From Micropterix aruncella (Eukaryota > Arthropoda > Insecta > Lepidoptera > Micropterigidae), in assembly GCA_944548615.1 (NCBI GenBank), contig OX155972.1, positions 13,264,614-13,328,613 of the forward strand: a DNA stretch of 64,000 bases, read 5' to 3'. Position numbers and translations under genes: made by a program. Shown here piece by piece: positions 1,532 to 62,400 of this stretch (positions are counted from its first letter, which is position 1; the number at the start of each line of letters is the position of its first letter). A model generated the notes under the pieces. The model had not been told where the DNA came from and did not search any database. It saw only the letters and a program-made list of their open reading frames with translations.

Positions 1532-1577
1532 TTGAAAAAGCGAAAAATAGACCGCTTGCAAAATCGCTGAATAAGAT

Positions 1578-4500
1578 ATGTCGACGAAAAATACGCCGTC
1601 CAGAAAAAGCCAGCGAATTGCTGACAAGAAGATGGACGGAGGCGCGGAAGCAGCTCGCGACCGAAGCACAGAATCGGTAGCGACCTCAAAACGACCGTCA
1701 TCGCGGGCGACATCGACTACCAGTCGCAGATCATCAAGATCCAGCGCGACTACGGTAGCAAGACGGCAGCTCGAAGCAGAATTACAAGCCGCCGACGAAC
1801 GGGCACGCCTGAAGGCCGACGCCGCCGTGACCGCAGCGAAAGCAGAAGCAGCCGCCGCCGCCGCCGCCGCCGCCGCCATTGAACAACAAATTAAACTGGA
1901 GTTGCTGGAGGAAAAATTGGCGCTTAAAAAACTGCTCATCGAAGCAGAAGTCCAAGGAGAATTAGACCAAGAATACGACGACGGCAGCAGCGTCTCCGAA
2001 AGCCGGATAGCACCGCACATCAGGATTGCAGCATCGAAAGCGTCCGTTCGCCGCACCACGGCGTGGCTGAACACGCAGTTCGAACCTCATCCAACGCAGC
2101 CTACCCAGCCGACAGAGGAAGAAGAAAAAATAGAACAGTGTCAGGACGAAAAAATAGTGCAGTGTCAGGACGAAAAAATAGTGCCGTGTCAGATCGAAAA
2201 AATAATGCCGTGTCAGTACGAAAAAATAGTGCCGTTTCAGAACGAAAAAATAGTGCCGTGTCAGAACGAAAATATAACGCCATGTCAAAATGTTAATTTT
2301 AGTACTGTGCCCCATCCGTCAATGACATATCATGCCCGAGCAAACTTGCTTAAAGACCTCCCGAAGTTCGCAGGTGATAGTCGAGAATGGCCAATCTTCG
2401 TGGCGCTCTATGACCAGGGGACATCCGCGTGCGGCTTTAGCGATGCGGATAACCTCGTCCGACTGCAGCAAAGTTTGCAAGGCGCGGCACGGGAAGCGGT
2501 GCGAGCGATGCTGATCGACCCGCGAAACGTGCCGGACATCAGACGCGCGCTGGAGCGTCGATTCGGCCGACCAGGTGCCCGAATTACCGAACTCCTGGAC
2601 GAGGCAGCGAAAACACACACCATATCGGTAAGTGATCCGTTATGTAAACTTGTGGAGTTTGGTACAGTAGTCTGCAACGTGGTGCATTCTTTGAAAAATA
2701 TGGGACACGCAGCATATCTGACAAATCCACATTTATTAAAAGAACTTGTAAATAAATTGCCCCAGCATCTTCGTCTTCAATGGTTCTCAGCAGTAAAAAA
2801 CGAGCACCCGACATTGTTAGAATTTGCAAATTGGGTAGAAAATATAGTAGATGCAGCTTCGTTAGAAGAGTCGTTGCCGACCACTCAAAACATAAACAAC
2901 AATCGAAATCGTAATTTTTCGAACAATCGAAATCAGAATTTCTCGAAAAAACAAACATACGTCACAAACGAAAACAAGCCGCCCACCTGTTTTAAATGTA
3001 AAAAAGACAATCATACTACACCTGAGTGTAAATTTTTGCTTGCGCTGACCATCAATGAACGATGGAATTTTGTAAAAAAAGAACATTTGTGCATTAGATG
3101 CCTTCATAAAAGCCATCAGTTAAAAGACTGTAGGAAAAATAACAAATGCGGCAAAGAAGGGTGTCAACAACCTCATAATACGGTATTACACTCTCCCAAG
3201 CAAAAAACCTCCGAAAATAATAACACGTCATCGTCCGGGAGCCCAACTCCCTCAAACACGACCATGTCCGGGAGCCCATCTCCTACAAACGAAGCATCGA
3301 CTTCAAAAACAGTTGCTAATACATGGCACGATACAACTGAAATACTTCTTCGAGTGGCCAAGGTAGAAATTCGCGGCCCCAACGGGTGTTTCAGTACCCT
3401 AGCGTTATGCGATGAGGGTTCGTCTATCACCCTACTCGAAGAAACAGTAGCCGATAAAATCGGAGCCGATGGCCCTAAAAGTCCATTGCACTTGGTAGGC
3501 GCATCTGGCATGACAATTAAAAACGGGTCTACGCGCCGCGTAAATTTGGAAATTCGCGCCGCAAATAACAATAAATTTTATCCATTAAAAGATGTAAGAA
3601 CCGTTAATAAATTAGACCTTCCAATACAAAAATTCAGCGCTAAAGACATGATGCAAAGATGGCCGCATTTAAACAAGGTTCCACTTTGCGACGTAAACGG
3701 TCGTCCGACATTACTAATCGGTATTGACCACTGGGATCTCTTTGTACCTCGCACTATTAAGGCAGGTGCGCCAGACGGACCTATAGCGACATCGTCACGG
3801 TTAGGGTGGACTCTTGGCGGCGCCTCGGGTAAGGCCGGAGCCACACGCGACCACGCGACCCATTTAACTGCGTTAAATGAAGAAGAAAGAGTAGATGAGT
3901 TAGTCCGCGAATATTTCAATATCGAAGACCTAGGACCCCATTTACGAAAACATAAACAAGTAACAAACGCCCGCGCTGAACAAATTCTCCAGTCATCTGC
4001 CAATCAGGTTAACGAGCGCTGGGAAATCGGTCAGTTATGGAAATCCGACCATACCGACTTACCGCCGAGTCGCGACATGGCCGAACGCCGCCTACTTTCG
4101 GTAGAAAGGCGACTGGCAAAAAACGATTCTACCGCGCGACAATACTGCGATAAAATTACAGAATTTATAACGAAAGGTTACGCCGAGAAATTAACTAAAA
4201 ACGAATGTCAGCTAGAAAGCTCAAAAATTTGGTATTTGCCACACTTCCAAGTTGAAAATAAAAATAAACCGGGAAAATTGCGCCTAGTCTTCGACTGCGC
4301 GGCGAAATCAAACGGTGTCAGTTTAAATGACCATCTACTGTCAGGACCCGACTTATTAAACCCGTTAATGGGAGTTTTATTTAAATTGCGACAGGGAAAA
4401 ATAGGCTTTACCGCGGACATTCGGGAGATGTTTCTCCAAGTAAAACTAAAAAATGACGACTCGCAAAGTCAACGTTTATTATGGCGAGACCTAGACACCA

Positions 4501-7229
4501 ACAAAGAACCTGAAGAATACCGAATGAAAGTAGTACTTTTCGGCGCTACTTCTTCCCCATGCTTAGCTCAATATATAAAAAACCGTAACGCTGATCGTTT
4601 CGAAAGTGCCTATCCGGAAGAAGTAATAAATATAAAAAATAATTTTTACATGGACGACTACTTAGGTAGTACGGACAACGTAGAGTCCGCCGAATCATTA
4701 ATAAAAAACGTAACACACATCCATAAAACCGGAGGATTCGACTTAGTAAACTGGGCTAGTAGTAACCCACATACTCTCAAAACTATACCCATAGAACACC
4801 AATCGAAAGCCAGCGTCACGTGGACAAATCCCGAAGATAACGTCGAGCGCATTTTGGGCTTACGTTGGGATCCCAAATCCGACACACTTGCTTTCGACAC
4901 CAATTTTCGAAAAATACCCCCCAATTTAATAAACGGTGAAACAATGCCGACTAAACGCCAGACGCTTCAGATCATTATGAGCGTTTTTGATCCCTTAGGA
5001 CTACTGGGACCCCTTGCCGTAAAGGCAAAAATCTTGCTGCAACATATATGGTTGCAAAAGGTAGAATGGGACCAAGTAATTGGCGAAAGCGCCTTTACAA
5101 AATGGAAAGTGTGGCTCGCGGAACTCAAATACATCAAAAACTTTAAAATTCCAAGGTGCTACCAGGCCGAGGGCGATCTAATAGGTAGTACACAACTACA
5201 CGTTTTCGCCGACGCGAGCGAGAAGGCCTACGCAGCCGCGGCATATGTTCGTTATATTGCCGCAAACGGACAAACCTGTGTGGCCTTCCTAGCCGGTAAA
5301 AATAAAGTTGCCCCATTAAAAACAATGTCTCTGCCGCGGCTTGAATTACAAGCCGCTACACTAGCTAGTCGATTAGCCAAATTCGTAATTGAGCAACACA
5401 CGTGGAAATTTGATGAGGTGTTTCTTTGGAGTGACAGCAAAACCGTGCTATCATGGATCCGTTCCGACCCTCGCAAATTCCAAACCTTCGTTGCGCACCG
5501 GCTCGGTGAAATTGACCAGCTGACCCAACTTCGACAATGGCATTGGGTGCCGTCGAAGGAAAACCCAGCTGACTTAGCGACTCGAGACACGGTTAGCGAA
5601 GGTTTAACCAATATAACTCAGTGGACATCAGGACCGACCTTTTTAAAACAACCACCTAGCGAGTGGCCCCGCGACACCCAAAATCCTACTGAATTTGAAA
5701 CACAAGAAGAACTAAAACATACGGTACATGTGAGTAGGGAGCCTGCGCCGAAACCGCTTATCGATATAACGCGATTTTCACAACTTAACCGCCTCATTCG
5801 CAGTACCGCATGGGCGCTCCGTTTCGTAGATAGGTGTCAGAAAAAAGGTACGAATGAAAACTCCCTCTCCGCGTTCGAAATGACTCGCGCAGAACTTCAT
5901 TTGATAAAAGGTGCCCAATTAGATGATTTTAAAAACGAAATTACTGCTATACGGTCAAACATACCTAATAAGAAAAACACAAAATTACGCCATTTAAATG
6001 CATATCTAGATGACGAGGGCCTTTTGAGAGTAGGCGGACGCATAAACGCGATCCAAGGCGTGGCACTCCAGGTTAAAAAACCCCCCATCTTAGATGCCAA
6101 ACACCCCTTTACGAAACTTTTAATACAACATCAGCATGAGGCAGCTAACCATAAAGGACGAGAATTCGTAGCTAATGAGCTTCGCCAAAGCTACTGGATT
6201 CTTCGTCAACGAGGTGCTATTCGACAAGTCACTTATGACTGTCAAAAATGCAAACTCGACAGAGCCAAACCAGTTCCCCCAAAAATGGCAGATCTTCCCG
6301 GTCTGCGGTTAGAGCACCACATACGCCCCTTCACTAATATCGGCCTGGACTTCTTTGGACCGATTGAGGTGGCAGTCGGGCGACGTAAGGAGAAAAGGTA
6401 CGGTGCTTTGTTCTGCTGCAGGAGCACCCGAGCCGTCCATGTCGAAATCACCAATAGTTTGACAAGTGATTCGACTATGATGGCCATCAAGCGCATGTGT
6501 GCAAGACGCGGAGTACCTTCGACAATATTCTCCGATAATGGCACCAGTTTTCATGGGGCTAATAATGAACTAAAAACTGCTCTAAAAAACCTCGACTGGG
6601 ACGACTTAAAAAACCAAAATTCCATAAAACGAATCGAGTGGAAGTTCAACACCCCAGCCGCCCCTCACATGGGAGGGTTCTATGAACGTCTCATTCAAGC
6701 GGTAAAAAAGGCCTTTTATGCCACATTAAAAGAAAAGCTTCCCCGCGAAGAGACCCTTCTTACATTAATGGCCGAAGCGGAAAACTCCGTCAACAGTAGG
6801 CCACTATTGTACGTGTCTCTTGACAGTCAAGATGACGAAAGCTTGACCCCGAACCACTTCCTGATAGGATCATCATCTGGACGCCTCAATTTCGGCGTAA
6901 TAGACCCAGAGAGCTTCTGTCTGCGGAAACAATGGCAGATTTCGCAGATTTTGGCCAACCATTTCTGGAACCGCTTCGTTAAGGAATACTTACCTACCCT
7001 AGCAAAGCGGTCCAAATGGCACGAGGAGGTTCCACCAATAAAGGAGGGTGATTTAGCCTTTCTGGTAGACCCGCAATTCCCTCGTAATACATGGTTGAAA
7101 GGTATTATAACAAAAACGTTCCCAGGGAAGGACGGGCAAGTTAGGACTGTGACAATACAATGCCGCGGGAAAAGCTATCAACGACCCGCGACGAAAATAG
7201 CTATTATTAACACTCCCGAAAAACGGTGA
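1578..7229 (+). CDS. BEL/Pao Gag-Pol polyprotein, 1883 aa, intact
   Basis: Encodes Gag, aspartic protease, reverse transcriptase, RNase H and integrase in one frame. Visible domains: low-complexity N-terminus with a poly-Ala run (about residues 90-100); an 8-residue tandem repeat (about 182-240); Gag core (about 250-450); two zinc knuckles CX2CX4HX4C at 471-484 and 505-518; protease with Asp612 in CDEGSS; reverse transcriptase with Asp947 and YMDD at 1024-1027; RNase H with Asp1212 and Asp1286; integrase with an HHCC region, Asp1591 (LDFFGP), Asp1653 (SDNGTSF) and Glu1703 (GGFYERL); and the C-terminal domain typical of Pao integrases (about 1790-1880). No stop or frameshift interrupts it, so it could be active. 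The start is the first ATG after the primer site, 47 bases downstream of it. Confidence 0.97.
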   Translation: MSTKNTPSRKSQRIADKKMDGGAEAARDRSTESVATSKRPSSRATSTTSRRSSRSSATTVARRQLEAELQAADERARLKADAAVTAAKAEAAAAAAAAAAIEQQIKLELLEEKLALKKLLIEAEVQGELDQEYDDGSSVSESRIAPHIRIAASKASVRRTTAWLNTQFEPHPTQPTQPTEEEEKIEQCQDEKIVQCQDEKIVPCQIEKIMPCQYEKIVPFQNEKIVPCQNENITPCQNVNFSTVPHPSMTYHARANLLKDLPKFAGDSREWPIFVALYDQGTSACGFSDADNLVRLQQSLQGAAREAVRAMLIDPRNVPDIRRALERRFGRPGARITELLDEAAKTHTISVSDPLCKLVEFGTVVCNVVHSLKNMGHAAYLTNPHLLKELVNKLPQHLRLQWFSAVKNEHPTLLEFANWVENIVDAASLEESLPTTQNINNNRNRNFSNNRNQNFSKKQTYVTNENKPPTCFKCKKDNHTTPECKFLLALTINERWNFVKKEHLCIRCLHKSHQLKDCRKNNKCGKEGCQQPHNTVLHSPKQKTSENNNTSSSGSPTPSNTTMSGSPSPTNEASTSKTVANTWHDTTEILLRVAKVEIRGPNGCFSTLALCDEGSSITLLEETVADKIGADGPKSPLHLVGASGMTIKNGSTRRVNLEIRAANNNKFYPLKDVRTVNKLDLPIQKFSAKDMMQRWPHLNKVPLCDVNGRPTLLIGIDHWDLFVPRTIKAGAPDGPIATSSRLGWTLGGASGKAGATRDHATHLTALNEEERVDELVREYFNIEDLGPHLRKHKQVTNARAEQILQSSANQVNERWEIGQLWKSDHTDLPPSRDMAERRLLSVERRLAKNDSTARQYCDKITEFITKGYAEKLTKNECQLESSKIWYLPHFQVENKNKPGKLRLVFDCAAKSNGVSLNDHLLSGPDLLNPLMGVLFKLRQGKIGFTADIREMFLQVKLKNDDSQSQRLLWRDLDTNKEPEEYRMKVVLFGATSSPCLAQYIKNRNADRFESAYPEEVINIKNNFYMDDYLGSTDNVESAESLIKNVTHIHKTGGFDLVNWASSNPHTLKTIPIEHQSKASVTWTNPEDNVERILGLRWDPKSDTLAFDTNFRKIPPNLINGETMPTKRQTLQIIMSVFDPLGLLGPLAVKAKILLQHIWLQKVEWDQVIGESAFTKWKVWLAELKYIKNFKIPRCYQAEGDLIGSTQLHVFADASEKAYAAAAYVRYIAANGQTCVAFLAGKNKVAPLKTMSLPRLELQAATLASRLAKFVIEQHTWKFDEVFLWSDSKTVLSWIRSDPRKFQTFVAHRLGEIDQLTQLRQWHWVPSKENPADLATRDTVSEGLTNITQWTSGPTFLKQPPSEWPRDTQNPTEFETQEELKHTVHVSREPAPKPLIDITRFSQLNRLIRSTAWALRFVDRCQKKGTNENSLSAFEMTRAELHLIKGAQLDDFKNEITAIRSNIPNKKNTKLRHLNAYLDDEGLLRVGGRINAIQGVALQVKKPPILDAKHPFTKLLIQHQHEAANHKGREFVANELRQSYWILRQRGAIRQVTYDCQKCKLDRAKPVPPKMADLPGLRLEHHIRPFTNIGLDFFGPIEVAVGRRKEKRYGALFCCRSTRAVHVEITNSLTSDSTMMAIKRMCARRGVPSTIFSDNGTSFHGANNELKTALKNLDWDDLKNQNSIKRIEWKFNTPAAPHMGGFYERLIQAVKKAFYATLKEKLPREETLLTLMAEAENSVNSRPLLYVSLDSQDDESLTPNHFLIGSSSGRLNFGVIDPESFCLRKQWQISQILANHFWNRFVKEYLPTLAKRSKWHEEVPPIKEGDLAFLVDPQFPRNTWLKGIITKTFPGKDGQVRTVTIQCRGKSYQRPATKIAIINTPEKR
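2120..2290 (+). repeat. 24-bp tandem repeat inside gag
   Basis: About seven imperfect copies of a 24-base unit encode the octad EKIVPCQx (variants EKIVQCQD, EKIMPCQY). The unit length is a multiple of three, so copy-number change keeps the frame. Most copies keep a Cys-Gln pair. Confidence 0.9.
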
Positions 7230-28681: not shown

Positions 28682-28804
28682 CAACTACCTACACTATGTA
28701 CGTGGAGCCCGTCTCTGGAAATTTTATTTGTTTGTAACTTTTGTATTTATTTTGTAAGTTGATTAAAAAAAATACCGAATGAATAGATGGGATATAATTT
28801 ATAA

Positions 28805-29390
28805 ATGGGATACAAACGAATTTACCGCGTGAAATTTGTAGCACCCGACGTTTCGGTGACGTTGCAGCCACCGTTGTCTAGGGTAGACTAAAAGAGCTGT
28901 CAATCCGGTATTTTGCGGGTAGGCCGAATACCGGTGCTGCCACTGCATAGGTTATAACGGTGGTGGGTAGCCGGACTCGGAGCGCTCGAATTTTGAAAAT
29001 CCGTCTAGCACACAACACTCACTGTATCCTGTCTTACGTCCTTGCGTTCGGCATTCGGCGGTGGAAACATTTTAAGAAGAGGGTTCCACGTAGAAGAGTT
29101 TGTAACCATTGAAGTTTGGGGTTCTTATTTCAACGGCTTCCCGGATCATGAGAGGAAAGTACAATTGTTCCTTGGATAGCACAATGGGATTTTGAAATTG
29201 CATCCAGTCGTTACTTCCGCTATCCAATATATGTTCGCAGATCTTCGATTTTTCTCGGTATGCGGCCTACCCGCAAAACAACGGATTGACAGCTCTTTTA
29301 GTCTCTCTGGACAACGACGGCTGCAACGTCACCGAAACGCCGGGTGCTACAAATTTCACGCGGTAAATTCGTTTCTATGCTATTTATAAT
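28805..29390 (-). mobile_element. Penelope-like element, 3' fragment in foldback form
   Basis: 28805-29262 is a minus-strand copy of the 3' part seen at 46060-46500. 29263-29380 repeats the last part in plus orientation, so the two make an inverted pair around 29262. Non-coding as it stands. Confidence 0.75.
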
Positions 29391-29874: not shown

Positions 29875-30438
29875 TTTGACCATAGCATTCCGGGGTAGAG
29901 TCAGCAGGCCAGATTCTGGGACACCTGGCGCTGGCGTACTAGGAAAGGGGTAATTTTGACTAGTAGGTACCCCCAAAGTGTTTTGCAAAAGCTAAAAATT
30001 CATCAGTGTAACAGCTCGAAACAAATAGTCAGACTGCTTAACAATAGAATGCGTGGCATCAGCATTACTCCATATTATATGTCATACTATATTACGGATC
30101 TTCAAGCCTCAATCACATCGCAGAGCAGCTACATTGCCGATGACACAAAATTCTTCGCCAATCCTATTCTATGCAGTGGACAGCTTCAGCAAGATCTTGA
30201 CAAGATCAAAGCGTGGACGGAAGATTGGTTGCTTACCTTAAACGTTGAGAAATGTGTAGTGCTTCATATCGGGAAAAGCGACCCCAACAAACAATATTTT
30301 CTGGCAAACGCCCAACTAGAAGCAGTCAAGCAACAAAAAGATCTTGGAATTACAATTACTGATGATCTCAAATGGGAGAAACACTTAAGGCGCGCTCTTA
30401 TCGCAAATCACCAAATAGTACCATTTTTGAAAGTCTAG
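29875..30438 (+). pseudogene. CR1/L2-like LINE reverse transcriptase fragment
   Basis: 30120-30410 encodes IADDTKFF (the YADD site with Ile), WTEDWLLTLNVEKCVVLHIG and QQKDLGITITDDLKWEKHL. The stretch before it (29875-30070) matches 43630-43840 in inverse and belongs to a LINE tail, so two pieces are joined. No complete domain remains. Confidence 0.8.
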
Positions 30439-30727
30439 TGCGACGTGACAAAGTTAAAATACAACGCTGAAAAAAATACTGTAGATAGATAAATAAACTA
30501 AAAAGACTTATAAATGAAAAGAATTTTGAAAAGAAGTCTAGTTTTTCAACAAAAAAACGCACAAATAATCCCTCTATAAAAACTTTGACATCGAAACTCT
30601 CCCAATTTTTAAAGGCGACAACATTTTTTTTTTTACGAAATAAATAGCCTGACTGGAGTTCTAAACGTATCTGAAGCCACTTTTTTAATTTGGTTTGTAA
30701 ATTTTGAAATACACCAAAAATTGTCGT

Positions 30728-30734
30728 TATATAA
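30728..30734 (+). promoter_or_regulatory. TATA box candidate
   Basis: TATATAA lies about 200 bases upstream of the first ATG of the Mutator-YqaJ gene. A short upstream frame starts at ATG 30780. Confidence 0.4.
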
Positions 30735-30926
30735 GGTGCGCGCATCGCGTCGTCTCTTCAAACACCGAGCAACGCTCGGATGGGACGGTCGTCTCGGCCG
30801 CTCTGCATTAGCGTATTCTGGTCGCTATTCAGCGTATTTAATGGAAATAAAATCGCAAGCTGACGTGCACCTGGGCTTTTAAATAGTGCATATATTGTAA
30901 ATAGTGACGCTGTATCAGAATAAACA

Positions 30927-33900
30927 ATGGGGAATAAAAATAAAAAACTTCAAAAATCCTTCGTGAGAAAACGACAGGGACCTAAGAAAAATGATAGATC
31001 GTTTGGGTAAGTAAAGCAGGATAGTATACCTTAATCATATGAAATCAAAATTCTTTATTACATTTTTCAATAAGTACATTATTTATGTTAATAAGCCAAC
31101 CTAACTAGGCCTCGCCTGTACTAAGGTAGGTTTAAAGTTATTTATGTGGTGTAGTTTACGGTATAAAGAAGTCAATTTTTATTGATTATTGTATTGTAAA
31201 ATCAATGTGAATTTATCAGCATCTACTAAATTGAAAAAATGACTAGTTGCACTTTAATTGCTATAGATAGTCTACATTACACCGAGAACTAAAGGTTGAC
31301 TGGCACTAGTAAATGCAAAACTTGCAGATAAATTATTGTATGATACCGCATTTTTGTCATTTACCCATTTTATATTTCTCTTAGATCAAAGAAGCGCAAA
31401 GTCAGTGATACTGATATTGGCCAACCGAGTACCTCAGCGGAACTAGTGCACGGAGAGTAAGTATCAATCATTTTGTGAGATACCATATTATGTTTAGTCT
31501 ATTTAGTAAGATTCATCAAAATCGGTTTAGTAGTTTCGAAGATATGAACTATTATGTGTATTACCGGACATACTAGACAAGTGCCTAGTCAATCCATGGC
31601 GTATTTATGAGCAAATAACGACAAAATATGATTGTGATGTGATGTGATGTTGGTTCCCAAAAATATCGGAACCAGTTGGATCACCACTTCAAATCAGAAA
31701 TCCGGCAAGTTGTTGAGACCGTACGTGGTGCCGTACTTGGCGGATATTTTTATATATTTACGTATATTTACTTGAATCATGGCTTGGCTGGCTGACGAAA
31801 AGACGGCTGCTTGTATTCTATGGTTTATTGTAATTGCCTAGCACATGTTTTCCTTGACTATTATCGTCAGGATGGTGGTATACGTTATTTTTAAATTATC
31901 ATATCTGTCAGTTTGTCTTTCTATGTTTTTTTTTCATAATTTCCTCAAGCAGAAAATCCTTTTTTATAGAAATCCGGCTGGTGAAACATATTACGGGATT
32001 GAACCAGAACAAGAACATGACTACACATCTGTTTACGGAAGGAGAATCGTAAATATATTGTACTTTTTTACTAAGCTTAAAGATATTTCAAAACACAGCA
32101 GTCTTTTTAACTGTGGTATTCAATGTCTGAGTTTTGTGGGAGAAAAGAGAATCGGATTAATATCAAAGTTTAAATTTAAGTGCGACATGTGTGGCTTGGT
32201 TTTTTTTATTAACTCTGACAATCCTGCATGTACTGAAAATGTCGAGACAAATGTTGGTGCTGTAATAGGAATAGTATCTTCAGGAATAGCCTATTCGCAA
32301 TTTGAAGAGATATCGTCATCTATGAATGTACCTATATTTTCAGAAAGGTTCTTTGCTAAAACGCAAGATAAAGTATTCGATGAGTGGGAGACGACGGCTG
32401 TAGAGGAAATGGATGCTGCTGCAGAGCGTGAACGCCAGGCTGCCATCGCTGAGGGAAGAGTCAAAGATGGAATACCGATAATTGATGTATACGCTGACGG
32501 GTGTTGGAGTGCAAGGTCCTATGGAAGTAACTATAGGGCTTTATCTGGAGCTGCAGTAATTATTGGTCGCAAATTTGGGGAAGTTTTGTTTATGGCCGTG
32601 AAAAATAAATACTGTGTCATTTGCGCACGTGCACATAACAAAAACACCGTCCCAAAATATCATATCTGCTATAAAAATTACGAAGGATCTTCTTCGGGGA
32701 TGGAAGCTGAAATAATATGTGATGGTTTTCGGCATTCGATAGAAATGTATAACATCATTTATGGGAGGCTAATTGCAGATGGTGACTCGGCAACCTATGC
32801 CAAAATTTTAGCACAGAATCCATACCCAAACACGACTGTGGTAAAAATTGAATGCCGGAACCACATACTCCGTAATTTGTGTAATAAATTACGAGCAGTC
32901 TCAAAAGAAATAAAATACCCCTTAAAATTCAGAAAATTATTAAGTGACAAAAAAGTCATGACTGTTAGAAAGGTGGTAATTTGCTCAATAAAAGAACAAC
33001 GCATATTAATACAAGAAGGAAACATTACAAAAATGCAGGCAATACAGATTTTACACGCTGATGTACAAAATTCCCTGTTACATGCTTTTGGAGATCACAG
33101 AAGATGTAAAAATTATTACTGCCAGACAGAAAAGTCTTTGATGAGTGCCATGGAAGTTCAAAATTCAACGTTTTGGTTTAGATTGAAAGTAATAATAGGC
33201 ACTGTAGCTTCCAAATCTCAAAGCTTAGTAGAAGATGCCGACACCAACACGGCTGAACATTTTAATAGCATAATTGCCAAGATTGTTGGTGGGAAACGTG
33301 TAAATTTTTCCATGAGACGAGCTTACCAAGGACGGTGTGCTGCGGCTGTTGTTGCTTTTAATAACAAGCTGCCTAGGTACACTATTCAAAAAAAAATCTT
33401 GGGTAAAAGTCCAAAAGGTGTTTTAAAAAAGATGGAATTAAGACGATATAACAAAAGACTATGGAACCGAAACAATCCACATAAAAAGAACAGGCTACAT
33501 AAAATTAACCAAACAAAAAATGACTATGGTGCTAATAGTGCTGCCCCGGATATGATACCAGAAGTATTGGAAAGAGCAAAGAAAGATTTTCTTGAAAATT
33601 TAGCTGTGTTGACCAGCGATAAAGAACGAATTGAAAAGGAAACCAAGTTACAACGCGACTGCAGTGAATGGTTGGAGCTACGAAAAAATATGGTCACTGC
33701 GTCTAATTTCGGAAAAATAATAAAAAAGCGCCAAAATACGAGTAGTGCCAATCTAGTAAAAAATGTATTATACTCTGAAAATATTTCGCACGTAGCATCT
33801 ATTGCTCACGGTGTAGAAAACGAAAAATTAGCCCTGCAACAGTTAGAGCAGCAAGAAAAAATTATAATTGAACCCTGTGGGCTATTCGTTGACAGAAAGT

Positions 33901-34451
33901 ATGCATTTATTGGAGCAACACCGGACGGAATTATCGGAGAGGATACAATTGTTGAGGTTAAGTGTCCTGTAATGGCATTTAAAAAAGGCATAGAACAGGC
34001 GATTAAAGAAAACAAAATTCAAATATACAAATATGATAAAAAAAAGGATACATACAAATTAAATCGTAACAGCAACTGGTTTTACCAAGTCCAAGGCCAA
34101 CTCCATGTCTCAAATAGACAAAAATGTCTTTTTGCAATATGGGGTGGCCAAGGCCAAGACTTGAAAACAGAGTACATTGAAAGGGAGGACGATATCTGGA
34201 CAGAAAAAATGGAAAAAAAAATTGTCGACTTTTATATGCAAAGTATTCTCCCAGAAATATTGGACTCCAGACATATGCGTGGAATGCCGATACGCAACTG
34301 TTTCAGTATACCAACAGCGGCACCGCTACCACTTCTATCACCAATGCGATCAACACAATCACCACCGCTAGCACCACTAAATAATTCGCCGCATACGCCG
34401 ACACAATTTAAGAACATTCAGCCAAGAGTATTAGATTATTCCGAGTTTTAA
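30927..34451 (+). CDS. Mutator-like transposase fused to YqaJ-type nuclease, 877 aa, three exons
   Basis: Join of 30927-31006, 31385-31456 and 31970-34451, with GT-AG introns (G|GTAAGT, GA|GTAAGT; acceptors CTTAG and TATAG) and fitting phases. Exon 1 is basic (MGNKNKKLQKSFVRKRQG); exon 2 holds a nuclear-signal-like KKRKV. Exon 3 begins with the Mutator-like domain: Cys pairs, then DVYADGCWSARS (Asp223/227), IADGDSATY (Asp321/323) and TAEHFNS (Glu480), likely the DDE set. From about 610 follows a YqaJ domain, WLELRKNMVTASNFG, then ATPDG (Asp703) and VEVKCP (Glu713, Lys715), the PD-(D/E)XK pattern, and WFYQVQGQLHV. The tail is Pro/Ser-rich. Domains known singly: DNA transposition and 5'-3' exonuclease or recombination. 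No terminal inverted repeats were found, so it may be an element or a captured host gene. Confidence 0.85.
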
Positions 34452-34487
34452 AAAAATCTCCACAAAATAAGCAATAAAAAATATCAA

Positions 34488-34680
34488 TAGTGCATGATAA
34501 TATGTGTATAGTGTATGATAGTGCTATGTGAATACTGTTACGTGTATTGCTATGTGCTATGTGAATAGTGCTATGTGCTATGTGAATAGTGTATGGTGCT
34601 ATGTGAATAGTGATATGTGAATAGTGCATGATAGTGCTATGTGAATGTGTGAATAGTGCTACGATAGTTGTATGTGAATT
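34488..34680 (+). repeat. Minisatellite GTGCTATGTGAATA
   Basis: About ten imperfect units directly after the Mutator-YqaJ stop codon. Confidence 0.9.
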
Positions 34681-34726
34681 TTAGGCGAAAAAGTGCTACG
34701 ATAGGCAATAGTTTTTGGGAAACTAA

Positions 34727-34790
34727 GATGAAGCAAAGGCTTGTGGATTTCTATCAAACATGCCTTTTACCCGGAATAGTCGGTTAAAGA
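34727..34790 (+). pseudogene. Relic of a related YqaJ-protein C-terminus
   Basis: Reads KMKQRLVDFYQTCLLPGIVG, close to KMEKKIVDFYMQSILPEILD of the intact gene upstream (about 34207-34266). No more of the copy is recognisable. Confidence 0.55.
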
Positions 34791-34984
34791 AAATCCCGTT
34801 TCATGCCCCAGAGAGATACCACATTATAAATTCTTACGAATATCTTAACCGGCGCCGCAATATGTTTTTTCGATGTTTTCTGTTTTTAACATTCTTTTTT
34901 CACATTTTTTCCATATACCTACCGACATACCACTCGGGCGGGGTGCATGGCCAAGCTGATTTCTGGACGGTGTTTTTCATCTGA

Positions 34985-36480
34985 GTCATCATATTTTTTT
35001 TATGTATATGCTTATGATACTTATGTAAATTAGGATATTATTAAAGATAATATTATAATTACGGTATCTCCGGTCGTTTTTTGGAGGTTTCCTATCCGGA
35101 CTTAAACGCTCTCATTGATCAAGTGATTTCGTGTGACTTCATATTGCTTAAAATTCTTAGTTTACGGATTTTATATATTGTTGTTTTTAAATATGCACCA
35201 CAAATTAAGTGTAAGCGTTTAAGGCAATGGATACCGTTATTTCCTCCTCAATGAGTCATATTAACGTATACAATAAAGAAAAACCGACTCTTTTGCTGTT
35301 ATTTTACTGATCCTTCTACTGTCTTGTACATTGTGTTAACAGTCTTTTTCAAGTCTTTTTTGATGCCCGGGCTAGAAGATAATCTTTTGGCACTAATAGT
35401 CACCTTGTGTGATATTTTTAACTCATAAAATATCCATACTAGGAAGGTGCCCCTTAAAAACCGCTGTAATTCAAGTGCGATTCTAATGGAGTGACTGTCC
35501 TTTCGATGATCGTTAAACAAACGAAAAAGAGGCACGGTCTACATAATTATACCTGCTCTAGGAAATGGGTGTTACAAAACCCATATATCTACTAATAATG
35601 TGTTAAATGCCACGGTGGCAGTATTTTTTTTATATCCGTAAAAAGAAAAATCACTTCAATTAGAAGTAGATTTAGCAATATGGTGTTGTCGTGGTATTTT
35701 GGTATAAGATTTTGTGTACTGAATATTGTTCAATATGAGAAATTGAGTTGAAAGTTACATATTACTTTTTTTCGTTGAGGCCAAGGTTACCGTCAAAAAG
35801 CGGGTTTTATTTTCAACTTTCAGATCTTTTCAGAATGTGTAATATTTTTAACAATAATATTTTTTATATTGCATTTTTTTAATAATTTATCATAATTCCA
35901 TATTATCCTAACTGAGAAATCAACAAAAAAATATTTTCAATAGATAAATTTTCTATAAGCAGAATGAATGATGAGGTAGGATAGCTGTTATTTGAAAATT
36001 TCATCTAAAATCATTTCTATTTCTGTGCAGAACAACAGATAAGATAGTACTGATATCAGTTATAATAAAGCAGAATTATCCTAACTACACAAAATGCTAT
36101 TTAAAATAAACATTTTGCATATTAAATTTCATAAAAATAAAGCTTTTAATAAACTATTCAAACTATAAAAAAATCAACTCTTAAGAATTATTCATATTAA
36201 AGATAAAAAGAAAATAGAAGAATAGAGAAGGAGAATAAAGTTTAAAAGTGCTCTCCTGACAAATTTGAATAAATCGAGTTAGGCTAGTTCGGCAATTATG
36301 GGACGAATATATGTATGTGCGTAAGGTCCTATCTATGCATTTTATAAATGATGATGTTTCCCGAGCTCCCAGGCGCCTGTCTGCGGCCGCGCAGCGATTG
36401 TCCGTTGGTCGCAGTAGCATTCCAAACGGACAAAAATTGTACTATTTTGTGATGTTTCTGATTATTTATTGCGGTCAGAC
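34985..36480. other. Intergenic, no supported feature
   Basis: AT-rich. A minus-strand frame near 35299-35535 has no recognisable motif. Confidence 0.5.
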
Positions 36481-36489
36481 CGCGTCTTA

Positions 36490-37150
36490 ATTGCAATTGC
36501 TAAAAGAGCCAACTCTATTCTCTATCTAATAAGGAAGGCTTTCCAACATCTATCAATAGAGGTTTTTATCAAGATCTACAAGGCATATGTGAGACCTATT
36601 CTTGAGTATGGCTATCAGATCTGGAACCCTTAATTTTGCAAGGATGTAGATATCCTGGAAAAGGTACAGCGAAGGGCAACCAAAATGCCAGTGGGCCTGC
36701 AAAATAGGAATTATGAAGATCCCTTGAAATTACTTGGAATTACTACACTCAAACAAAGAAGACAAAGAGGGGACCTGATTGAGACATATAAAATTCTAAC
36801 ACATTATTACGATGTACCTGCACTGAATAATATTTACAAATTCAACGTCAATACAAATCTTCGAGGTTACAACAAAAAACTCAACCGTACAAAATTTAAA
36901 TCTAATCCTCGTTTGCCAAATAGAGTGATGAACGTTTTGCCAAATAGAGTGGTGGACATGTGGAATAAACTACCATTTGAAGTGATTAGTGCAATCTGTC
37001 AATCAATTTAAAAATAGACTCGATTTCTACCTAAAAACTTGTTAATATTGTTTATATTATATTGTTAATATTGTTTAGCTTTACAAGATCTGATCTGGAC
37101 GTATCAGCAGAGCTGCCTGTCCAGAATAAATAATAATAATAATAATAATA
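36490..37150 (+). pseudogene. CR1/L2-like LINE, 3' end with (AAT)n tail
   Basis: Encodes YKAYVRPILEYGYQIWNP, an in-frame stop, then [10 protein letters not shown] and [15 protein letters not shown], ending VVDMWNKLPFEV. It finishes in AATAATAAT repeats at 37128-37150. Same family as 59859-60705. Confidence 0.88.
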
Positions 37151-59400: not shown

Positions 59401-62400
59401 ACTAATGTTTGTGTTTCTCTACTCTCTTGTCCGCTGAGGTATAAATCGACGTAAGATTGGAAGCCTGGTTTCCGCACACCATCAGAAAGAGCGACCAGGC
59501 ACTCTTCCAATAATAGAATATAAGCACGGCTTGAAACCTCGACTCGAACCGCCAACAGCGCAAAACTCGTCGGAAGCCCACTTACACATATACTTACAAC
59601 TACTGAGGTGAACTCTACTGTAGTGTTGTAATCGGACCATTAGAAACAAAATGGGATTAACGAGTCACTTCCGCGCGCATCTTCGAAGAAGTCCTATCAA
59701 CCAAGAGGTCGCCGCCGTCGGATCACGATGAGAAGGACATCATCGTCATCAGAATATACATAAGGAAATAAGAAGGAAATAAAAGCCCGCAGATTACAAG
59801 ATAAAATTAAATTTCCAACGGATTTCTCCGAACCACAAACACTATTCTTATCCACATCGTGCAATGGACTAAGGATTGGCTTCTCACACTAAACGCAGAT
59901 AAATGCACCGTACTGCATATAGGTCCCAAGAATCCGCATCACAAATACACGATCGAGGGAACCCCTGTACACACAGTTACCACACAGAAAGATCTTGGAG
60001 TAATTGTGTCCCAGGACCTCAAATGGGAACCGCATATAGTAGAAGTTGTAAAAAGAGCAAACTCACTTCTTTACATGATTAGGAAAGCTTTCTCCTACAT
60101 AAACTCTGATTTGTTCCTCAAACTCTACAAAACGTATGTCCGCCCTCTCCTCGAATACTCTTACCAGGTGTGGAACCCTTACTTCATAAAAGACATTGAA
60201 CTGCTGGAGAAAGTGCAAAGGCGGGCAACCAAGATGGTTCCATCCCTAAGGAACGAGCCTTATGAAAACCGCTTGGCTGCACTGGGTCTTACTACACTTG
60301 AGCAAAGAAGACAAAGAGGGGACCTCATCGAGACGTTTAAGATTCTGAATGGTCATTATGATGTAGCCAACCTTAATGCAATGTACACAATGAACACCAA
60401 CGAGAAACTCCGTGGACATTCCTTAAAACTAAACCGAAACAGTTTTAGTTCCAACCCAAGAAAGTACTTTTTGACTAACCGAGTGGTGGACTCTTGGAAC
60501 AAACTACCACAAGAAGTGATAAGTGCTATCTCAGTGAATGGTTTTAAAAATCTACTAGACAAACATTTAGTAAAAATGGCAATTAAAAAGTGTAAGGAAT
60601 AAAATAAAATAAAGACAAACAGTACACTCAACACGTGAAGTACACGCAACAGCTGCAAAAGCTGCTAGTGTATATAAATAAATAATAATAATAATAATAA
60701 TAACCCTTACGATGCCAAAAAAGATGATCGGCATTTTACGGTGGTTGATAGATCGGCGCGTGGCCATTTTGGCCGGCCTCCCTATATATTATATAATTAT
60801 ATAATACACATGACTAACAAGATGATTTATTAGTCAAAAAGAGAAAATTTATCAAAAAAATTATATTGTTAGTATTTATATACAAAATTGACCAAAAAGG
60901 TGCGGTGGCGTTTTTGCACGCAAAGGCTGGCTTCCGAACGGTTAAAGTATCTTTAACCGCTGGAATGCTAAAACCACCGATCGGTGGTATTTTCGCAGCG
61001 ACAACTCGCGGGCGGCCGATCTCCATATTTATGCAATTATGTATATGCGTAATAAATAATACACAAAATTTTAAGAAAAAAAAAACTGACCCCGATTTTT
61101 TTTATAAGTCCAGCAGCCATGACATGGTGATACTTAGAACGGGCTATCATAATTAAATGCATTTACAAAATGTGTCTGTGCTGTTAACCATTGAGGAGTT
61201 CCCTTGTGCCGCAGTCCTGTCTTGGTGAAACTTAGAACGGGCTGTCATAATTGAATGCATATACAAAATTTCGTGTCTGCTCTGTTGACCGTTAAGGAGT
61301 CTCCTCGTCGGGAGCCAACCCTGGGTGCAGCAGCCATGTCATGGTGAAAGTTAGAACGGGCTATAATAACTGAATAAGTATACAAAATTTTGTGTCTGTG
61401 CTGTTGACCGTTTAGGAGTCCCTTCGTCTGGAGCCAACCTAGGGTGTATATTCAGGTTATGCTTACCATAAAAAATATACATTGTCATCGGAATTGAATC
61501 ACCATGTACACTTTCGAATTCATATGATAATATTTGAGGAGTTCCCTCAATCCCTCATAGATCCCATCATCAGAAAAGGATTTCAAATAATAAAAAAAAA
61601 ATCCCAATCGGTTCATAAATAGCAGAGTTCTAAGGTAACAACATTAAAAAAAAATATACAGCCGAATTGATAACCTCCTCCTTTTTTTGAAGTCTGTTAA
61701 AAAGTCGCCTTTATTGAATAAGCCACCGTTATACATTAGCTTGCGTGCACTAACACCCCCTCCCCTACAAATCAATTTTCGAGGGTTGAAAACATGCCGT
61801 CGTGAGTTTCATTCCCACGGTCAGCTTTCGAAGGGTTAACATATTATCAGACCAAAACAAAAGACTACTAACCTCATTATACAGATCGATATGAATCAGC
61901 CTGGTCTTCGCGAGTAAGACCAAGTTGTATCTTCCCGTTTTGTCATTAGATTCCATTAATATGGAAAAGTTGTCGCTCTTGTAGTCTTTGCTGAGGAGGA
62001 ATGTGCCTCGCTGGCTGATAGTGTAGACCTCGCGGTCGAAGGTCACGAGAGTTCCGTCTCCCATCATTATAGCGTGACCTGTTTAGTTAAAGTACTGTAA
62101 GTGGATTTTGTGAATGAAGAATTTCCACTTGTCTTTCCAGGCAGTGGGGTCAGACTGGGTGCAGGCAGAATTACTGAAGTTATTAGGCAATAACCGGATT
62201 GTGACTTTCAACAACTTCTCAATAAAATAAAGTCTGCACCAATTGCAGCTTCAAGACTAGCTTGAAGCTTCAGCATCTGGAGGTAAGAGGGAGTGTTTTG
62301 AGATGGATTACAAGACTTTTTTACTAATCGCACCTTTTAAATAAGGGCGGAAGTGGCTTTATCAGACTCATAATATAATGTCCTCAGTGGTGAACCGCAG

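What the first reader, a model, noticed from the sequence alone, without database searches (positions are those of the whole stretch)
30927..34451. Mutator-like transposase and YqaJ nuclease in one spliced protein
A DDE transposase-type domain (Asp223/227, Asp321/323, Glu480) is followed in one frame by a PD-(D/E)XK nuclease of the YqaJ/lambda-exonuclease type (Asp703, Glu713, Lys715), with a nuclear-signal-like KKRKV in a small upstream exon. YqaJ domains usually work in viral or phage recombination. A transposase that brings its own exonuclease could process ends or use single-strand annealing. Both active sites look kept and the frame is intact. Each domain is known; how widely the fusion occurs is unknown to me.
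Basis: partly seen in the sequence, partly recalled or inferred. Interest (0 to 1): 0.85.

Follow-up and report, generated by a model that had tools for sequence, protein, structure and literature searches.

The report
Young jumping gene with built-in exonuclease
This is a complete, recently mobile insect DNA transposon of the Kolobok superfamily (lineage KolobokE), whose single protein carries both a cut-and-join enzyme and a lambda-exonuclease-like nuclease; the lineage is already named, but what its nuclease does is untested as far as we could find.

Summary
Three exons (30927-31006, 31385-31456, 31970-34451) join in frame into an 877-aa protein with a PF20700 transposase domain (E 6e-92) and a PF09588 YqaJ nuclease (E 7e-16); both active sites are kept. 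"Mutator-like" follows Pfam's name, but the element behaves as Kolobok. It spans 30389-36486 (6098 bp), is flanked by TTAA, and interrupts a LINE frame that becomes continuous when the element and one TTAA are removed. Of 31 copies looked at in the host assembly, both ends were located in 20, and 19 of those have TTAA on both sides; 9 of 12 full-length copies keep the ORF. Termini GG...TC, CxxH, two zinc-finger motifs and a downstream lambda-exonuclease-like domain match what Kojima & Bao (2022) call KolobokE. The fusion is common: 89 of 115 listed homologues have both Pfam domains. So it is a new member of a known lineage, recently active, neither a domesticated gene nor a MULE. Open question: what the tethered nuclease does. 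My best guess, with low confidence, is 5'-strand resection at transposition breaks.

The parts
30385..30388 (.). left TTAA target-site duplication
   Evidence: LINE frame restored on removal
30389..36486 (+). whole KolobokE-type element, 6098 bp
   Evidence: in copies with both ends, similarity ends at or within a few bases of the TTAA
30389..30429 (+). left terminal inverted repeat region: GGCGCG... terminus plus inner 23-bp arm 30407-30429
30927..31006 (+). exon 1, start codon
   Evidence: GT donor in 12 of 12 full-length copies
31385..31456 (+). exon 2, with KKRKV
31970..34451 (+). exon 3: transposase and nuclease
32037..33122 (+). PF20700 transposase domain (DDE, CxxH, two zinc-finger motifs)
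   Evidence: (residues 66-427 of the frame from 31842); residues; ISCth4-like fold
33666..34118 (+). PF09588 YqaJ / lambda-exonuclease-like domain
   Evidence: (residues 609-759 of the frame from 31842)
34668..34826 (+). decayed relic of a second KolobokE protein C-terminus inside the element (one in-frame stop)
36431..36486 (-). right terminal inverted repeat region: inner arm 36431-36453 plus terminus ...CGCGTC
36487..36490 (.). right TTAA target-site duplication
29899..30388 (+). upstream half of the interrupted LINE reverse-transcriptase frame
36491..37011 (+). downstream half of the same LINE frame (holds one older stop)

Best explanation
A complete, recently mobile KolobokE DNA transposon. 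Its one protein is predicted to bind the short terminal inverted repeats, excise or copy the element with its DDE site, and join it into TTAA (shown: TTAA duplication, copies at many sites, deleted copies sharing the ends; inferred: the chemistry). The C-terminal lambda-exonuclease-like domain stays tethered to the transposase and most likely digests 5'-ended strands at DNA ends made during transposition, leaving 3' single strands. That would steer the broken donor site to homology-directed repair from a copy that still holds the element, refilling the site and raising copy number, with abandoned repair giving internally deleted copies (inferred; not shown).
Confidence: 0.55

Rival explanations
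1. Same KolobokE transposon, but the nuclease acts inside the transposition reaction: it cuts or trims the second strand, or opens hairpin ends, as a TnsA-like partner of the DDE site.
Against: The nuclease is nearest lambda exonuclease and LHK-Exo. Related DDE groups excise without such a domain (general knowledge).
Confidence: 0.2
2. Domesticated host gene: a former transposase kept for a host role, not mobile.
For: Intact long ORF with introns.
Against: Many near-identical copies at different TTAA sites, ends intact, deleted derivatives sharing ends, insertion inside a LINE.
Confidence: 0.02
3. A true MULE (Mutator superfamily, e.g. Phantom) as Pfam's name and the reader suggest.
For: PF20700 is named Mutator-like transposase; MuDR, Kolobok, P, hAT and Dada share C/DxxH (PMC9587614).
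Against: 4-bp TTAA duplication in 19 of 20 copies and in a copy of a second family, against 8-11 bp for MULEs (passage); zinc-finger motif between D2 and E, said to be absent in MuDR.
Confidence: 0.03
4. The nuclease is cargo serving the element indirectly (for example against competing or extrachromosomal DNA), with no role in strand processing.
For: Other Kolobok lineages carry unrelated accessory enzymes: DnaQ-type exonuclease, His-Me nuclease, RecQ helicase, KolX, so accessory choice is loose. Four rows end at query residue 692-694, before the QxQxQ motif of the nuclease, at four places in the genome (whether these moved as such was not tested).
Against: Fusion to the transposase and residue-level conservation. 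The truncated copies could be moved in trans by intact ones.
Confidence: 0.15

Closest known systems
KolobokE lineage of Kolobok DNA transposons (Kojima & Bao 2022, PMC9587614)
   Different: No clear difference seen.
ISL2EU (PHIS superfamily; PMC4482050, passages)
   Same: A YqaJ exonuclease accompanies a DDE transposase; TIRs usually begin GG
   Different: YqaJ in a separate ORF beside a DDE, HTH and THAP transposase; different target (A|AT|T)
KolobokD and KolobokP
   Same: Same superfamily, share the CCHC motif after the first D, each with a nuclease
   Different: DnaQ-type or His-Me nuclease instead of the lambda-exo type
Lambda exonuclease / LHK-Exo
   Different: Here tethered to a transposase, with extra residues between the catalytic Lys and the QxQxQ motif; activity unknown
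ISCth4 (IS256 family, recalled) and Hermes (hAT) transposases
   Different: No such nuclease domain and different target duplications (recalled)

Membership tests
Kolobok superfamily | 4-bp TTAA target-site duplication | tested here: met
   19 of 20 copies with both ends located; one copy of a second family too
Kolobok superfamily | termini 5'-RR ... YY-3' | tested here: met
   GG...TC in the window copy and the copies with both ends; second family GG...CC
Kolobok superfamily | C/DxxH between second D and E | tested here: met
   C295 and H298 in 72 of 72; over all 154 homologues C 148, H 148, one H to A, the rest gaps
Kolobok superfamily | zinc-finger motif between CxxH and E, third position Cys | tested here: met
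   H371, H376, C379 72/72; C384 70/72; metal binding not tested
KolobokE lineage | CCHC zinc-finger motif after the first D | tested here: met
   C215 71, C218 72, H231 72, C233 70 of 72
[quoted passage not shown]
KolobokE lineage | placement with reference KolobokE sequences in a DDE-core tree | not tested
   reference sequences not held
Xenopus-type Kolobok (XKol) | THAP DNA-binding domain | tested here: not met
   no THAP family among the three Pfam matches at E<=1 of the whole 877-aa protein. PMC6004289 (passages) calls THAP usual; the KolobokE description seen does not require it
MULE (Mutator superfamily) | 8-11 bp target-site duplication | tested here: not met
   TTAA, 4 bp
MULE (Mutator superfamily) | match to Pfam's MULE domain | tested here: inconclusive
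   one search lists PF20700 only (named Mutator-like), no other transposase family at E<=1; filters drop most weak matches
piggyBac | TTAA duplication with piggyBac-type termini and transposase | tested here: not met
   TTAA shared, but termini are RR/YY, which says separates Kolobok from piggyBac; no piggyBac transposase family listed
ISL2EU | YqaJ in a second ORF beside a THAP/HTH transposase | tested here: not met
   fused to PF20700 in one ORF
YqaJ / lambda exonuclease | PD-(D/E)XK residues in the lambda-exo fold | tested here: met
YqaJ / lambda exonuclease | 5'-3' exonuclease activity, ring-shaped trimer | not testable with these tools
   needs biochemistry

The most novel reading that the evidence does not exclude
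KolobokE transposases are animal two-nuclease machines in which the tethered lambda-type nuclease takes a direct, obligatory part in moving the element: it processes the 5' strands at the ends or forces donor breaks into homologous refilling, so that this transposon carries its own copy-number amplifier.
Probability: 0.25. Interest if true: 0.72.

Novelty: new member of a known kind. Interest (0 to 1): 0.4.

Why it matters
The lineage is named, but I found no functional study of its nuclease in the papers I could search. This genome holds near-identical intact copies (9 of 12 full-length ones), so it offers a ready test of why several DDE transposon groups (KolobokE, KolobokD, KolobokP, ISL2EU) each took up a nuclease. 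If the nuclease directs how the donor break is repaired, it would explain how a cut-and-paste element raises its copy number. It also shows that Pfam's name for PF20700 can mislead annotation: here the element is Kolobok-like, not Mutator-like, and insect proteins named for a 'YqaJ viral recombinase domain' that also hold PF20700 (such as P0009 and P0012) are probably transposases of this kind.

Tried and rejected
Domesticated gene: rejected by TTAA-flanked copies. MULE/Phantom: rejected by target-site length. Viral carriage: a scan of viral contigs with the family profile confirmed no relative (175 stretches matched a pattern, none by tblastn); this says little about the nuclease's origin. 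Rfam and tRNA scans of the window were empty. Selection among copies: 29 non-synonymous and 15 synonymous departures from the majority in 12 full-length copies, against about 3.2:1 expected; departures shared by copies are counted more than once and numbers are small, so no claim. Co-location of YqaJ and PF20700 matches in the host genome: 48 of 150 listed YqaJ hits have a listed PF20700 hit within 4 kb and 48 of 114 the other way round; both lists are capped (150 of 1203 and 114 of 1417 candidates scored), and even two 869-aa frames lack a listed partner, so the rest are undecided. TnsA is not among the rows shown; that is no test.

Full report
What is there. The window gene has three exons, 30927-31006, 31385-31456 and 31970-34451, which join in frame to 877 residues. 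The protein matches PF20700 (Mutator-like transposase, E 6.2e-92), PF09588 (YqaJ, E 7.2e-16) and PF01771 (viral alkaline exonuclease, E 3.5e-9), and nothing else at E<=1 (exon 3 frame alone). The best PHROGs matches are an exonuclease family and a RecE-like exonuclease family.

It is a transposon with exact ends. A LINE reverse-transcriptase frame is cut in two, 29899-30388 and 36491-37011. Removing 30389-36486 and one TTAA makes the frame continuous, and across the junction it aligns without a gap to a second LINE at 59811-60602 in this window. With the left flank fixed and the right flank shifted by -60 to +60 bases, the TTAA join scores best (726; next 717). One stop remains in the downstream half. 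So 6098 bp entered a TTAA site and duplicated it.

Copies in the host genome. Searching it with exon 3 gave 61 match rows (55 of 4134 candidates scored); 18 rows span the whole query and 13 of these have no stop. I fetched 30 further copies of this family (18 of the 20 loci, the other two being another family; 12, chosen because the left end matched without a listed protein match). With the window copy that is 31. Both ends could be located in 20, and 19 of those have TTAA on both sides; L029 has TTAA/GTAA. In the other 11 the right end was not found in the fetched stretch; 8 of them have TTAA on the left and 3 do not (L022, L032, L036). In the copies with both ends, similarity stops at or within a few bases of the TTAA.

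Recent activity. Twelve of the 31 are full length, about 6.1 kb (L017, 6334 bp and rearranged near its left end, is not counted). All 12 keep the four splice sites; 9 keep the 877-aa frame, two (L019, L020) have the same stop, one (L029) is frameshifted. The window copy differs from the others by 0.39-0.56% substitutions; L010 and L011 differ by one substitution; L019 and L020 have the same length and no substitution between them, although about 15.6 kb apart with different flanks and their own TTAA, so a copy with a stop was moved, presumably in trans. Internally deleted derivatives share the ends: L030, L033 and L034 have the same internal junction at three sites. The left 400 bp matched 40 places, all that were scored of 151 candidates.

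A second family. L027/L028 encode a 47% identical protein. The copy on C3 is 9633 bp, with perfect terminal inverted repeats of at least 14 bp and TTAA on both sides; the C21 copy has a damaged left end and lacks the full TTAA on the right. The PF20700 search shows further frames, for example of 763, 841, 918 and 920 residues, in several copies each (114 of 1417 candidates scored).

The protein. In 72 aligned sequences (the window and 71 homologues, picked by me from those annotated with both domains, which favours an intact nuclease), D270, D272, C295, H298, E429, E618, D652, E662 and K664 are present in 72 of 72, and D176 in 71 with one gap. Over all 154 homologues returned by the two searches, without that choice, the transposase residues are D176 in 141, D270 in 149, E429 in 151, and the nuclease D/E/K in 120/122/120. 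Nearly all the rest are gaps; in 29 proteins the alignment does not reach the nuclease Asp. Deviations at nuclease residues occur in 4 proteins (P0096, P0098, P0101, P0136) and at transposase residues in 2 (P0079, P0127). Of the 115 homologues, 89 carry both Pfam domains and 26 do not have PF09588. The named spider, damselfly and fungus-gnat proteins listed show PF20700 only.

What it is called. Kojima & Bao 2022 (PMC9587614; [quoted passage not shown] They describe a zinc finger between D2 and E whose third position is an extremely conserved Cys, and a CCHC finger after D1 in KolobokP, E, D and 5 and a few others. These features are met here; the tree was not tested. It is the only paper in the library that contains the word KolobokE. 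Searches for YqaJ with Mutator and transposase, YqaJ with transposon and eukaryotic (20 of 25 papers listed), Kolobok with exonuclease, transposase and nuclease, YqaJ with insect and transposable element and PF20700 (none) listed no paper that its title or abstract start shows to be a functional study of this nuclease; apart from PMC4482050 (passages) and PMC9587614 I saw only listings of those results. PMC6446971 and PMC6004289 were seen as passages. Most subscription journals are not held, and Repbase Reports were not looked up.

How it may work. Shown: insertion at TTAA, many recent copies, deleted copies sharing the ends. Inferred from families: DDE strand cleavage and joining; divalent-metal nuclease. 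Guess: the tethered nuclease resects 5' strands at transposition breaks and favours homologous refilling of the donor site. I put the filing as KolobokE at about 0.95, a direct role of the nuclease in transposition or donor repair at about 0.7, and the resection model itself at about 0.45; the 0.55 given for the best explanation is a blend. The presence of a YqaJ nuclease in ISL2EU (PMC4482050, passages) supports a general use, while the ISCth4 likeness leaves a copy-out route open.

Verdict. The finding is a well-preserved new member of a named lineage. Interest is moderate: the biology of the nuclease is open and testable, but the architecture is neither new nor rare.

Noticed in passing
34668-34826: Inside the element, after the main stop codon, a decayed piece homologous to the last part of KolobokE proteins (35-53 residues, 42-57% identical in the 25 best matches, one in-frame stop), just after a minisatellite: trace of an older duplication or recombination of the gene end.
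   Followed up: partly
34548-34679: Minisatellite with 7/14/21/33-bp units between the gene and the relic.
   Followed up: no
34422-34448: The extreme C-terminus ends PRVLDYSEF; 22 of 71 relatives in the alignment end in a similar hydrophobic/acidic tip (like R-x-L-D-F-x-E-F), against 5 of 4828 internal tail positions. The pattern was written after seeing examples. Possibly a docking motif.
   Followed up: partly
host genome G000: Many YqaJ frames without a listed PF20700 partner, above all 615-aa (26 listed) and 324-aa (9 listed) frames; they could be ISL2EU second ORFs or other elements.
   Followed up: partly
host genome G000: A PF20700 family with 918-aa frames in many copies of nearly equal score had no YqaJ hit in the capped list; whether it has the nuclease is undecided.
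   Followed up: no
L019 and L020 (C9, about 15.6 kb apart): Two 6100-bp copies without a substitution between them and with the same stop codon, with different flanks and their own TTAA: a very recent local jump of a stop-bearing copy.
   Followed up: yes
1575-7229: Uninterrupted 1884-aa frame of a Pao/BEL-type retrotransposon polyprotein (Peptidase_A17 E 4e-48, reverse transcriptase, integrase zinc-binding).
   Followed up: partly
28800-29388: Long imperfect inverted repeat (82-bp and 49-bp arms, 91-94% complementary), looks like a foldback or MITE-type element.
   Followed up: no
59811-60602: Second LINE fragment, used as yardstick for the interrupted one.
   Followed up: yes
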